Assembly: GCA_021779635.1 (NCBI GenBank)
Contig: JAJYAH010000482.1
Span: 1 to 5,843, forward strand
Source: Pseudomonadota bacterium
GTDB taxonomy: Bacteria; Pseudomonadota; Alphaproteobacteria; Rhizobiales; Xanthobacteraceae
Direction: 5' to 3'
DNA length: 5,843 nt
Positions within the stretch are counted from its first letter, which is position 1; each line of letters opens with the position of its first letter. The notes beneath the pieces are model-generated. The model did not search any database. It was not told the origin of the DNA and saw nothing but the letters and a program-made list of their open reading frames with translations. The translations under genes were made by a program, and so were the position numbers. Shown here one piece after another: positions 1 through 5,843 of this stretch.

Positions 1-2405
1 ATCCCCCAGGCGTCAAAGCCTCCATTGGTCATGCACGTTGCCTCGATGGCGGCAATCAATGCATGACGCTCATCGCCATTTAAGGCGTGGGCGCTCATCA
101 TCGCCGCATGCATCAGCCCGAGCCGCAGGTGGTGGGCAGCTCTCGACCAGATGCGAACGAGAATTCCGGGAAGGATCGTTCCGATCGAGGGCGCGTTACG
201 ATCGGAATACTTGTCGAGTTCGATCAGCAGACCAATCTGGCCAGGGCTCAAGGTTTCGGACTGCAACCGCCCGCGCAGGTTTACATTCGCTGCGACTCTT
301 GGTCCGTTGTAGAGGTGACCGCTTGAAATGGGGCTGCAAATGCACGAAAGCCCAATTTCGCGCATCCCGACGCCCGCGTAGCAAACCGCATAGAGACCCG
401 TTCGTAGACCAAGCTTCTTTTCCCTCGCTTGATCAAGCAATCTGCGGTGCTCTTCGGCTAGCCGATCATCCATTTTCCCTATGAGATCGAGCAATTGATC
501 GAGACGGCGGCCCGCTACCAGTTCGTGCGGAATGGCCGCAAGAAGCGCACGGTCCTGTGTGGACCACGGCTGAACCGTCTCCGGCTTTGCTTGCACGTGC
601 CACATGAACTCATCGGAAACATCAAACCGCACGGTATCGATTTCCTGGCCGACCCGCGCAAGTATCTCGTCACAGCGCTCGTTTGCCCAACGCTGCGCAT
701 CAGATCCGCATTGGCCTGCCAGGCAGGCCTGAATTACTCGCGCGTCTGTTAGATGTGGCAACACCTGGCGCCGGAAGCTGTCATCATCGATCGCTCCCAG
801 TACGAACGGCCTCACCTCAAGATGTTGCGGCAACCGCAGCGCAGCCACCACCGCTTCAGGATCGTCACCCGCGCGCCGGATGATCGCTTCGGCCGCGAAT
901 ACGTTGAGGAACATTTCGTGGCTGAAACTCACCCGGTCACCACGCCTGCCCAGAATGTTTGCATCCGCAAGCGTCTGCAATAAGGCGCCCGATACCCCTT
1001 CCCGATCTGACAGGCGGTCTAGCTCGCGGACCGAAAGGCCGAAACTTATGCGCTCGGTCATCATTCCAGCGATGCGGGATAGACCGCGAATGCCATCGGA
1101 GGCGGCAGAGCCGAGCCGTTCGCGCACATAGGCATCGAACAGACCATACTTACTGGTGTCGGGCGGCAACTGTTGTCCCAACTGCCCGATCATCTTCGCT
1201 TCAAGGCCGCTTCCGACGGTGCCGAGCAACTCCGCAAACGGTTCGGCAGAAACGCCGCCGGCCGCCTGTTGCGCGATGGCCAGTTTTGTTTTGGTGTCGG
1301 GAATCTGTACCGCGTAGCTGCGTGCGGGTAGAAGATCGCCCCGCTCAAGCGGCATCCTAGTGGAGATGACGGCTCGCGCATCATACCGTTTCACAGCCGC
1401 AGCAATACTTCGCGTCAAGCGCTGTCGTTCCTCTGGCGTGCATTCGTTGTAGCCGTCCACGACAAGCATAAGTCGGCGGTTCAGCCGCCGCGCAGCGGAA
1501 ATCACCGCGACAGCAGAGCTCGCCTCGAGCAAAGCGGCCTCACGATTCACCACATCGCGCAAGTTTCCTTCAAAATCCTTCGCCGGCACGACGATCGGCA
1601 CGTTTCCGCGCGTCAACCCGGCGAGACCGATGCTGAAGGAGAGCAAGCTCTTGCCGCATCCTGAAGGTCCCATCAGTAATACGTTGTCGTCCTGCACGGA
1701 GCGTTCCAGCACGACCTCCGACGAAAGCTCTTCGCTTTCGCAAACGCACGACATGGGCACCATCTCAGACACAGATGCACCGTAGGTTCGGATGAATGCT
1801 TCACCGTAGGCGCCGAGCAACTGCTCGGCATCGAGCAATTGCGGGCTCAACGCCGCCTCGATCGACGGTGCCGCAAGCAAGCGATGGTGGGCCGCGAAGG
1901 CTCGCCACTGATCCAACGACCACCCGTCGCGCTTCATTGATGTGATAAACGCCGGAAGTTCAGCGAGGCCGCCGATCGAAACCTTGAAATCACCCTGCGG
2001 GATCGTCGAACCCGGAGGAACGCTTGGAACGAAGATTAGGGCCGCATTCGAATAAGGAACATCGGCCCCGGCAAAGCTTCGCATCGCATCACGCAACGCC
2101 AGCTTCTCGTCGTTAACCTGGCGATATGGGTTCGTGAATTTTTTCCAAGCACCGGAAGCAAGTTGGGCTTCCCAATCGCCGTTGTGTCCCCCGCGCACGG
2201 CCGAAGTGAAGCCTTTTGACTCGGTGACCAGCGCGGCGCGGTCAATCACGATGACGAGATCGACCTGCCGGTCGCCAAGATTTACATTCGCAAGGATGAC
2301 GGCCGGAATGCCTTCAGCCGACAGAAATTCATAGGCGTGCTTCAGCGTGGCTCGCTCGGAAGCATGCTCAATCGGCGCGCCAATGAAAATCTCTATCGAG
2401 GCCAA
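1..2405 (-). CDS. NERD nuclease-like domain fused to a NACHT/STAND NTPase, 3' end outside window
   Basis: Reading the minus strand from 2405 gives 801 codons with no stop before the left edge. Residues 10-80 match a NERD domain (PD-(D/E)XK type): Glu in ASER (E17), ANVNL (39-43), RQVDLVIV with D49, the ESK triad portion (E62, K64) and a trailing GDW (76-78). A P-loop NTPase follows: Walker A GPSGCGKS (246-253), Walker B LMLVVDGYNE (312-321), a sensor-like AVISTR with R350, and SFSHEMF (493-499), as in the winged-helix region of NACHT/STAND proteins. Residues about 510-801 are mostly helical, including LRLPQHLEVRPFVLGAI and a Cys-containing stretch (YAVCYAGVG, LSCICS); a sensing role is inferred. 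The start is a TTG with GGAG 6 nt upstream (2415-2412). A GTG at 2417 without a ribosome site would add four residues. The frame is closed upstream by TAA 2450-2448. By family knowledge, STAND proteins oligomerise on sensing a trigger and activate an attached effector, here the putative nuclease. Domain calls are firm; the immune role is inferred from neighbours. Confidence 0.88.
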   Translation of the reverse strand, partial: MASIEIFIGAPIEHASERATLKHAYEFLSAEGIPAVILANVNLGDRQVDLVIVIDRAALVTESKGFTSAVRGGHNGDWEAQLASGAWKKFTNPYRQVNDEKLALRDAMRSFAGADVPYSNAALIFVPSVPPGSTIPQGDFKVSIGGLAELPAFITSMKRDGWSLDQWRAFAAHHRLLAAPSIEAALSPQLLDAEQLLGAYGEAFIRTYGASVSEMVPMSCVCESEELSSEVVLERSVQDDNVLLMGPSGCGKSLLSFSIGLAGLTRGNVPIVVPAKDFEGNLRDVVNREAALLEASSAVAVISAARRLNRRLMLVVDGYNECTPEERQRLTRSIAAAVKRYDARAVISTRMPLERGDLLPARSYAVQIPDTKTKLAIAQQAAGGVSAEPFAELLGTVGSGLEAKMIGQLGQQLPPDTSKYGLFDAYVRERLGSAASDGIRGLSRIAGMMTERISFGLSVRELDRLSDREGVSGALLQTLADANILGRRGDRVSFSHEMFLNVFAAEAIIRRAGDDPEAVVAALRLPQHLEVRPFVLGAIDDDSFRRQVLPHLTDARVIQACLAGQCGSDAQRWANERCDEILARVGQEIDTVRFDVSDEFMWHVQAKPETVQPWSTQDRALLAAIPHELVAGRRLDQLLDLIGKMDDRLAEEHRRLLDQAREKKLGLRTGLYAVCYAGVGMREIGLSCICSPISSGHLYNGPRVAANVNLRGRLQSETLSPGQIGLLIELDKYSDRNAPSIGTILPGILVRIWSRAAHHLRLGLMHAAMMSAHALNGDERHALIAAIEATCMTNGGFDAWG
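713..729. repeat. 17-bp perfect dyad within the NERD-NACHT gene
   Basis: GGCCTGCC and GGCAGGCC are exact inverted copies around a central A at 721. It falls within coding sequence for the helical C-terminal region (around residues IQACLAGQ), and nothing around it suggests a regulatory or mobile element. It is most likely a by-product of GC-rich codon use. Confidence 0.25.
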
Positions 2406-4432: not shown

Positions 4433-5843
4433 CGCGGATGCGCTCCAGCGCCTGTCGGATGTAGTCCGGGCAGGTATCGTCAGAAACATGAGGGGCAAGC
4501 GCTTGAGCGAAGCGGCCCTTACCAACCCGTTCGACGAGCGTAATCAAACGGTCCTCATCGAGCGTGTCAGGATCGTCCACCCATTCCTGCAACGCGTCGC
4601 GAGTTTCCTGGCCGATAGCCAGCTCTTCCTCGATGATAGTCTGCATCTCCTCGGCCAGCCCACCGGTGAATAGCTCCGGTTCAAGCGTATTGCCGTTGAC
4701 GAAATAGCCGAGGGGTTCTGCGCGGGCGATCACCGCGTCTGCGTCTAGACGCCGGTAGTTCACACCGTCTTCCAGCAATTCCAGGAGATTGATCAGGCGT
4801 CGTCTTACGCGGGGATGACCGTCACCGTTCGGGTCGCGGTCGGTCAGAATGACATGCGGAATATTCAGCCCTTGAGGTCCAAGCAGCTTCACATAGGGCG
4901 CGAAGTTCGTGCCGCCGACCGAACAAACGGTGATGCCTAGCGTATCCAGCGGAATATCGAGCGCCTCCGCAAAAGCCGGAACAAGGAAGCGCTCGGCATC
5001 GCCTTCGACCAGAATCACGCCGCGCGCAAAGAAGATCTCGCCGCGAGTCACATCGATGTAGCGTTGCAGATCCGCCTCATCGCGCTCCGTGAGCGGAGCG
5101 GCCGCGGTCGAGACCGCAACGGTCGCCTCCTCTTCTGCGTCGTAACGAAGAAGAACGATTGAGCGAATCGGCGTAACGCTCGCAATGTGCGGAGAATGCG
5201 TGGTCAGGATCGTTGTGAGGGGCGATGTGTCCTCCTCGCCGTCGTCGACGCTTCCGAGAAAGTAGCGGTAGACGAGCCGCTGAACATGCGGGTGAAGATG
5301 CGCTTCCGGCTCTTCGACCACGAAGAACGTGTGGTCACGCTCGCCGTCGGTCACAAGTCGGTCGAGCTCGAGGCTCTTCAATGCCAGGAAGATCAGATTG
5401 GCGGTGCCCAGGCTTGCTTCCGCGATACCTCGCGTACCACTGTCGATCAGCAGGCGCAGGGCGCGTAGTAGCGCGTCTACCCGAGTCGGCGCGAGACCGA
5501 GCGTCACCGGGACGGCATGCTGTTCGCCGGCGATTGCAACCAGGCGCTCGCTGATCCGCTCCGCGGTCGCAACCACCTCAGCGCGGCCAGCGAGTTCAGT
5601 TTGGGCCTCGTTTACCTGCTCCTGAATCTCGTCGCGCGCGTCTTCATCTAGCGATCTCGCCAACTGTTCGATCAGCGGCCTGAGCGGCGAGTTTCGCCAG
5701 CTCGACAGGTCCTTCTCGGCATCACGCAGCGCGACCTGGACGTCCAGCGGCAACATGCGCCGCAAAGAAGCGCCGATCGCCATATCGGGATCGTCCCCGC
5801 CGAAGACGATATACTCATAGTCCACGAGAGTTTCAGGATCGCG
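4419..5843 (-). CDS. OLD-family ATP-dependent nuclease (ABC-type ATPase plus TOPRIM), GajA-like, 5' end outside window
   Basis: The frame is open from the right edge to a TAA at 4421-4419, giving 474 visible residues. Residue numbers below count from the GTG at 5825. The C-terminal half of the ATPase is visible: a signature-like SLGTANLIFLAL (138-149), Walker B with catalytic Glu in FFVVEEPEAHLHP (167-179) and an H-loop TTHSPH (208-213). A TOPRIM domain follows, with its Glu in ILVEGDAE (271-278), the glycine turn in CSVGGTNF (301-308) and the metal-binding DxD in ILTDRDPNGDG (326-336). NGNTLEPEL (377-385) is typical of OLD proteins. Walker A is absent because the N-terminus lies outside the window. 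The GTG at 5825 has no ribosome site and codons continue upstream of it, so it is probably internal. OLD proteins are ATP-regulated DNA nucleases; those beside a UvrD helicase are class 2, which includes GajA of Gabija. The 3' end overlaps the helicase gene by 14 nt. OLD identity is very likely; membership of canonical Gabija is inference. Confidence 0.93.
   Translation of the reverse strand, partial: RDPETLVDYEYIVFGGDDPDMAIGASLRRMLPLDVQVALRDAEKDLSSWRNSPLRPLIEQLARSLDEDARDEIQEQVNEAQTELAGRAEVVATAERISERLVAIAGEQHAVPVTLGLAPTRVDALLRALRLLIDSGTRGIAEASLGTANLIFLALKSLELDRLVTDGERDHTFFVVEEPEAHLHPHVQRLVYRYFLGSVDDGEEDTSPLTTILTTHSPHIASVTPIRSIVLLRYDAEEEATVAVSTAAAPLTERDEADLQRYIDVTRGEIFFARGVILVEGDAERFLVPAFAEALDIPLDTLGITVCSVGGTNFAPYVKLLGPQGLNIPHVILTDRDPNGDGHPRVRRRLINLLELLEDGVNYRRLDADAVIARAEPLGYFVNGNTLEPELFTGGLAEEMQTIIEEELAIGQETRDALQEWVDDPDTLDEDRLITLVERVGKGRFAQALAPHVSDDTCPDYIRQALERIRDAVT

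What the first reader, a model, noticed from the sequence alone, without database searches (positions are those of the whole stretch)
1..5843. Gabija-like OLD/UvrD pair in one operon with a small protein and a NERD-NACHT protein: candidate composite defence system
Seen: four minus-strand genes with junctions of -14, 0 and about -13 nt, encoding an OLD/TOPRIM nuclease, an intact SF1A helicase, a 72-residue protein and a NERD-P-loop NTPase. Known: GajA (OLD) and GajB (UvrD-like) form the two-gene Gabija anti-phage system, and NACHT/STAND proteins are used as phage sensors in bacteria. Inferred: the four genes act as one unit in which the nuclease/helicase module and an NLR-like sensor with its own nuclease cooperate or back each other up. 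I do not recall a named system with this exact content.
Basis: partly seen in the sequence, partly recalled or inferred. Interest (0 to 1): 0.75.

Follow-up and report, generated by a model that had tools for sequence, protein, structure and literature searches.

The report
Gabija beside an NLR-like nuclease gene
A bacterial stretch carries a known two-gene anti-phage system (Gabija), then the broken remains of a restriction-enzyme gene, then a large unstudied immune-receptor-like protein with its own nuclease domain; it looks like two defence modules in tandem rather than one four-part system.

Summary
The four minus-strand frames and their tight junctions are real. Genes 1-2 are a Gabija pair (PADLOC GajA 1.7e-179, GajB 2.6e-240). 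Gene 4, cut at its 3' end, is a NERD–STAND protein (about 1115 aa in relatives); a relative's model resembles NLRC4/NLRP3/NOD2 in its NTPase core. Gene 3 is most likely not a working gene: it is a deletion remnant of an Mrr-type restriction endonuclease gene, codons 1 to about 40 joined to codons 180-195 of a ~300-aa enzyme, then running into DNA before gene 4. It shows no codon-position bias in the one pair testable and is shrunk to 24 and 23 codons in the two other Gabija–NERD loci. Of 28 public NERD–STAND loci, 2 have this Gabija directly upstream. In close relative L007 Gabija is replaced by Hachiman, leaving the last 18 codons of gajB, the remnant and the NERD gene. The same Gabija subtype occurs without NERD. 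So: most likely two independent modules in tandem, not an obligate composite. The NERD–STAND family, with changing upstream partners, is the part worth testing.

The parts
4419..5843 (-). gajA: OLD-family ATPase/TOPRIM nuclease of Gabija, 5' end (about 120 codons with the Walker A part) outside the window
   Evidence: PADLOC GajA 1.7e-179, profile 123-595 of 596; Pfam OLD-like_TOPRIM 1.1e-20; relatives in L002 and L006 are 594 and 593 aa
2612..4435 (-). gajB: UvrD-like SF1A helicase of Gabija (ATG 4435; longest frame starts at TTG 4525)
   Evidence: PADLOC GajB 2.6e-240 and 4.5e-233; Pfam UvrD-helicase 1.6e-39
2612..2667 (-). end of gajB that survives as a stump in L007, where Hachiman and a 371-aa frame replace the rest of gajAB
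   Evidence: shared DNA L007/window begins here; 18 residues 61% identical
2393..2611 (-). gene 3: 72-codon remnant of an Mrr-type restriction endonuclease gene; possible relay frame between gajB and the NERD gene
2492..2611 (-). remnant piece A: codons 1-40, matching residues 1-40 of the ~300-aa endonuclease
2444..2491 (-). remnant piece B: codons 41-56 (GAIRLVGEQIDGSFKL), matching residues 180-195 of the endonuclease core; about 140 residues between A and B are missing
   Evidence: score 57 against the L031 enzyme, 1000 shuffles reach at most 40
3..2405 (-). NERD–STAND gene (NERD nuclease domain, NLR-type NTPase, helical repeats), 801 codons in the window of about 1115; TTG start
   Evidence: Pfam NERD 5.8e-9; 399 homologues; model and fold matches of relative P0001

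Best explanation
Two separate anti-phage modules stand in tandem, probably on one transcript. (1) Gabija: GajA and GajB form a nuclease–helicase complex that cuts phage DNA. (2) A bacterial NLR-like protein: its helical C-terminus senses a phage product or infection stress, the STAND NTPase oligomerises, and the N-terminal NERD nuclease is switched on and destroys DNA, probably as an abortive response. Between them lies a dead fragment of a third defence gene, an Mrr-type restriction endonuclease. Shown by sequence: the identity of the modules, conserved motifs in the parts held, the origin of the remnant, and replacement of the upstream module in a relative. Taken from published work on Gabija: the complex and its DNA cutting. 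Inferred: co-transcription, translational coupling, and the sensing and killing steps of gene 4.
Against: The order is kept in three loci assigned to different families, and the Gabija-linked copies lack the upstream box seen before four solo NERD genes, which fits dependence on the Gabija transcript. Gabija lies in the DNA held around 5 of 28 NERD loci, of three GajA subtypes. In one of three locus pairs the divergence of gajAB and NERD does not differ (L002–L006, p 0.2). No expression or phage data exist.
Confidence: 0.75

Rival explanations
1. Composite system, without gene 3: GajAB and NERD–STAND are one functional unit, for instance the NLR-like protein guards Gabija and fires when a phage inhibitor blocks it, or is armed by Gabija's DNA products.
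For: Tandem order kept in window, L002 and L006; no own promoter-like box or site before gene 4 in the window; Gabija near 5 of 28 NERD loci, and in 5 of 6 genomes with a strong GajA match (E below 1e-170) that GajA lies beside the NERD gene (the query was built mostly from those neighbours).
Against: 2 of 28 loci have the pair directly upstream; L007 swapped Gabija for Hachiman; the Gabija subtype occurs alone. Gabija's scatter on the tree is no more clustered than shuffled labels (178 of 500 shuffles as low).
Confidence: 0.15
2. Gene 3 is still useful, not as a protein but as a relay frame that carries ribosomes from the gajB stop to the NERD start.
For: A frame stays open from the gajB (or stump) stop to the 13-nt overlap with the NERD start in all four loci with that junction: window, L007 (72 codons), L002 (24), L006 (23).
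Against: Frame-keeping in so few cases is weak evidence (chance of two multiple-of-three changes is about 1 in 9). In L004, which has no gajB in the DNA held, the first codons are gone and the match changes frame.
Confidence: 0.3
3. Gene 3 is a true small protein, such as an inhibitor, adaptor or antitoxin of one of the modules.
For: Ten 72-aa homologues, the window's own included, keep the full frame.
Against: Two-piece match to a restriction endonuclease, no codon-position bias, more divergent (34 of 216 sites) than NERD four-fold sites (40 of 429; p 0.018), nearly deleted in L002 and L006. Protein databases list only frames that are still open, so the ten are a biased sample.
Confidence: 0.07

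Closest known systems
Gabija (GajA–GajB)
   Same: Gene order, OLD/TOPRIM nuclease plus UvrD-like helicase, PADLOC models match strongly. GajA's best solved relatives are class 2 OLD nuclease regions.
   Different: Followed by a remnant and a NERD–STAND gene, which are not part of Gabija as described (PMC10781630, abstract and outline seen).
Bacterial NLR-like proteins (bNACHT, AVAST/Avs)
   Same: N-terminal effector, central STAND NTPase, C-terminal helical repeats; fold matches to animal NLRs, with EfAvs5 lower (Foldseek rank 41, E 1.9e-3).
   Different: Effector is a NERD nuclease; no PADLOC Avs model matched and NACHT is below Pfam's cut-off.
NERD nucleases in PglW (type 2 BREX), DndF, Mokosh, Nhi-like
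   Same: NERD domain as a nuclease in defence proteins, in BREX and Dnd proposed as a back-up (passages of PMC12839542, PMC10853773, PMC10952713).
   Different: There NERD is joined to kinases, P-loop kinases or helicases, not to an NLR-type NTPase with helical repeats.
Mrr-type restriction endonuclease with an N-terminal helical domain (plasmid genes in L030-L033)
   Same: Gene 3 keeps residues 1-40 and 180-195.
   Different: About 140 middle residues and the whole C-terminal part with the ExK strand are missing; no active enzyme is possible.
Hachiman (HamA–HamB)
   Same: Takes Gabija's place upstream of the same remnant and NERD gene in L007; 31 nt upstream of a distant NERD–STAND gene in L022.
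   Different: Not present in the window.

Membership tests
Gabija | GajA: OLD-family protein with ABC-type ATPase and TOPRIM domains | tested here: met
   PADLOC GajA 1.7e-179; Pfam AAA_15 and OLD-like_TOPRIM. The N-terminal ATPase part lies outside the window; it is present in L002 and L006.
Gabija | GajB: UvrD-like helicase encoded next to gajA | tested here: met
   PADLOC GajB 2.6e-240; 17-nt overlap with gajA
Gabija | 4:4 GajA–GajB complex that cuts DNA and restricts phage | not testable with these tools
   needs protein and phage work
   gene 4: 2 of 28 loci, from two families; full-length gene 3 beside gajAB in 0 of those 2
   phage plating needed
Bacterial NLR-like protein | STAND/NACHT-type NTPase with intact P-loop and Mg-binding stretch | tested here: met
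   GxSGCGK and DGYNEC invariant in 26 of 26; NLR folds are top matches
Bacterial NLR-like protein | N-terminal effector and C-terminal repeat sensor | tested here: met
   NERD above Pfam cut-off; helical repeats in the model of P0001. The window itself lacks the last ~310 residues.
NACHT as defined by Pfam PF05729 | score above Pfam's gathering cut-off | tested here: not met
   16.0 against 26.7 bits
AVAST (Avs) | match to a PADLOC Avs model | tested here: not met
   only PDC-M16A, over the NERD part, at E up to 0.01 and for P0001 at E up to 0.001
Mrr-type restriction endonuclease (gene 3) | complete D...ExK catalytic core | tested here: not met
   only the GEQIDGSF strand is left; ExK absent; the L007 copy has lost the Asp too

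The most novel reading that the evidence does not exclude
The NERD–STAND gene is a portable second line of defence that docks behind different primary systems (Gabija, Hachiman, AbiJ-like or CHAT-protease genes) and fires when the primary system is blocked or overwhelmed; the primary module can be exchanged while the NERD gene, its relay frame and a stump of the old partner stay in place.
Probability: 0.15. Interest if true: 0.72.

Novelty: new variant of a known kind. Interest (0 to 1): 0.42.

Why it matters
It corrects a tempting four-gene reading and gives a clear molecular record of how defence operons are rebuilt: a dead endonuclease fragment and an 18-codon gajB stump mark the joints. 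It also singles out an NLR-like protein family with a NERD nuclease, unnamed in PADLOC and NCBIfam as searched here, that stands behind Gabija in one lineage and behind Hachiman in its close kin, so 'back-up or mere neighbour?' can be tested directly by removing either part in a laboratory host.

Tried and rejected
Whole genome of the window: none held. Viral contigs: 27 pattern matches, none a relative of NERD–STAND. Near-identical DNA on plasmids: one record, Rhodobacter pRCB133, covering gajAB only. Gene 3 as a member of a known small family: no Pfam, PADLOC or NCBIfam match at the thresholds used; its origin came out by tblastn of P0134 against plasmids. NERD–STAND by sequence in the PDB: weak P-loop matches only, NLRC4 among them. 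The 371-aa L007 protein: no Pfam match and no PADLOC match.

A special tie of Gabija and Hachiman to NERD–STAND was weighed. Of 28 genomes 8 match GajA at E 1e-25; 6 do so below 1e-170, and in 5 of those 6 the GajA lies beside the NERD gene, the sixth (genome of L005) elsewhere. Six of 28 match HamB at E 1e-40; the four with E 0 have it beside the NERD gene, two of them have a second copy elsewhere, and two weak matches lie in other genomes. The query alignments came from those neighbours, so this is biased. On the tree the Gabija and Hachiman labels are no more clustered than shuffles (178 and 143 of 500 as low); the AbiJ-like label is (0 of 500). I therefore claim scatter and exchange, not a specific tie.

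Literature: searches of the held open-access library (most subscription papers and all preprints are missing). I opened passages of PMC10952713, PMC12839542, PMC10853773 and PMC10910872 (the last only names NERD and NACHT in a list of abbreviations) and the abstract and outline of PMC10781630; all other papers were seen only as listings. In what I saw no Gabija–NERD–STAND unit is described; that is not proof that none is in print.
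Full report
WHAT IS THERE. The window holds four overlapping or abutting frames on the minus strand: gajA (5843-4419, 5' end missing), gajB (4435-2612), a 72-codon frame (2611-2393) and a NERD–STAND gene (2405 to the window edge, 3' end missing). PADLOC assigns genes 1 and 2 to Gabija: GajA 1.7e-179 (profile positions 123-595 of 596), GajB 2.6e-240 and 4.5e-233 in two models. The nearest solved sequences are class 2 OLD nuclease regions for the L002 GajA and PcrA/Rep/UvrD, then Gabija GajB, for gajB. 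Gene 4 has a NERD domain above Pfam's cut-off; NACHT and nSTAND1 are below theirs.

GENE 3. The search found 14 homologues, the window's own included; ten are exactly 72 aa. One of them, P0134, matched 10 plasmid records, 6 of them annotated as restriction endonuclease at the place. Four were fetched: proteins of 301-307 aa; Pfam was run on one (L030) and gives Mrr_cat, 3e-6. Gene 3 of the window matches them in two collinear pieces: residues 1 to about 40 with residues 1-40, and residues 41-56 (GAIRLVGEQIDGSFKL) with residues 180-195 of the L030 enzyme. Against the L031 enzyme the second piece scores 57; 1000 shuffles reach at most 40. The middle and the ExK strand are gone. Window and L007 differ at 12/11/11 first/second/third codon positions (34 of 216 sites, 84.3% identity), more than the four-fold sites of the NERD gene in the same pair (40 of 429; Fisher p 0.018), while gajB against L002 shows the bias of a gene under selection (24/19/120). 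Only this one pair could be tested at the DNA level over the full length. In L002 and L006 the frame is down to 24 and 23 codons. In L004 the first codons are missing and the match changes frame. It is most likely a relic. A relay role in translation is not excluded, since a frame stays open from the gajB (or stump) stop to the NERD start in the window, L002, L006 and L007.

NEIGHBOURHOODS. Of 51 pattern matches in the genome collection 28 loci encode a relative of gene 4. L002 (Rhodoplanes) and L006 (Hyphomicrobiaceae MAG) have gajA-gajB directly upstream. L003, L004 and L005, with NERD proteins 90, 85 and 83% identical, show no gajAB in the DNA held; L004 has only 2.1 kb upstream. More distant Gabija genes lie in L008, L016 and L028, best matched by other GajA models than the window's: 5 of 28 with Gabija in the DNA held. 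HamB (Hachiman) is in L007, L009, L010 and L022, 4 of 28 (PADLOC run on L009 and L022; profile search for all four; HamA by Pfam in L007 and L022). An AbiJ_NTD4 protein stands 24-29 nt upstream of the NERD match in L018, L024, L025 and L026 (Pfam run on L018 and L024; the other two by likeness), and an annotated one 12 nt before a plasmid copy (L052). A CHAT-domain protein overlaps the start in L027. Five of the 9 plasmid records with a NERD–STAND match were opened; none has Gabija or Hachiman annotated in the stretch shown. Flanks end early at contig ends in several loci, so the counts are lower bounds.

EXCHANGE OF THE UPSTREAM MODULE. Between L003 or L005 and the window's closest kin the shared DNA shrinks to the NERD frame, from about 11-33 nt before its start to about its stop. 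L007 carries HamA–HamB, then a 371-aa frame whose last 18 codons are the end of gajB, then the gene 3 relic, then NERD. On a tree of 29 NERD proteins L007 falls inside the Gabija-linked set: window + L006 + L007 has support 96/90, while L006 + L007 has only 83/70 and the join with L002 80/59. Gabija needs at least 4 label changes and Hachiman 3; three changes may be one gain and two losses. The simplest reading is that Hachiman replaced Gabija in front of an otherwise unchanged remnant and NERD gene. Four-fold divergence is higher in gajAB than in NERD for window–L002 (141 of 590 against 61 of 414, p 4e-4) and window–L006 (142 of 589 against 48 of 422, p 2e-7), not for L002–L006 (110 of 653 against 59 of 425, p 0.2), which suggests partly separate histories.

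THE OTHER DIRECTION. In a draw of 397 genomes of the order of L003's genome, 4 carry a NERD–STAND relative (E 1e-20) and 5 a close GajB (E 1e-100); one, that of L006, has both. The regions around the other four GajB genes show no NERD match. In 265 genomes of the genus of L003's genome 3 carry NERD–STAND. Plasmid pRCB133 of Rhodobacter capsulatus carries gajA and gajB 86% identical to the window's, with no NERD gene next to them.

EXPRESSION. Four of nine loci examined (L005, L008, L009, L010) share an upstream box (AAATCTYTGRYGGG or a variant in L009, then T-rich CATAAT); it is absent before L002, L006 and L007, and also before L003 and L004, which have no gajAB in the DNA held. The window has no match, and no promoter-like site was found in 2300-2750, though one weak terminator-like site was (2426-2412, about as many as shuffles give). 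That the Gabija-linked copies depend on the upstream transcript is inference.

VERDICT. A known system (Gabija) in tandem with an uncharacterised NLR-like NERD–STAND protein, joined by a relic of a third defence gene. Functional dependence between the two is possible but has little support beyond adjacency in one lineage. Published work seen: PMC10952713 (passages: NERD in Mokosh type I and Nhi-like), PMC12839542 and PMC10853773 (passages: NERD in PglW and DndF, proposed as back-up nucleases), PMC10781630 (abstract and outline: Gabija 4:4 complex that degrades phage DNA).

Noticed in passing
L018, L024, L025, L026 and plasmid locus L052 (7365-7976), just upstream of the NERD–STAND gene: An AbiJ_NTD4 protein precedes NERD–STAND in Xanthomonas, Caballeronia and Buttiauxella; one clade on the tree (100/99). 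This pair looks more like a conserved two-gene system than Gabija plus NERD–STAND does.
   Followed up: partly
L007:8679-9794: 371-aa frame between HamB and the gene 3 relic, ending in the gajB stump; no Pfam or PADLOC match; contains RNDIAH, which recalls a HEPN-type motif (from memory).
   Followed up: no
L027:5610-9980: 1456-aa protein with a C-terminal CHAT (caspase-like) domain overlaps the start of a Bacteroidota NERD–STAND gene.
   Followed up: no
L030-L033 (about 4995-5918): Mrr-type endonucleases of about 300 aa with a shared N-terminal domain; in L030, L031 and L032 a different kind of gene (XRE/peptidase-like, ATP-binding, nucleotide-binding) ends at or within a few bases of the start.
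   Followed up: partly
L002:1289-6156: KAP-NTPase and TatD-DNase genes (Pfam) with two genes between them lie upstream of gajA: a Qat-like cluster by recall, so an island Qat–Gabija–NERD.
   Followed up: partly
L004: Methylacidimicrobium (Verrucomicrobiota) carries a NERD–STAND protein 85% identical to the window's with a decayed copy of the gene 3 relic: recent transfer between phyla, or contig contamination.
   Followed up: no
L049:4647-5066: A relative of the Mrr catalytic part (46% over 143 aa) lies upstream of another gajAB pair (gajA match from 5508).
   Followed up: no
L010:9995-12407: The NERD–STAND frame of Mesorhizobium temperatum stops after 739 codons and the match goes on in another frame: a broken copy.
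   Followed up: no
L005, L008, L009, L010, 18-90 nt before the NERD start: Shared box AAATCTYTGRYGGG followed by a CATAAT stretch at near-constant distance: a likely promoter or operator of solo NERD–STAND genes.
   Followed up: partly
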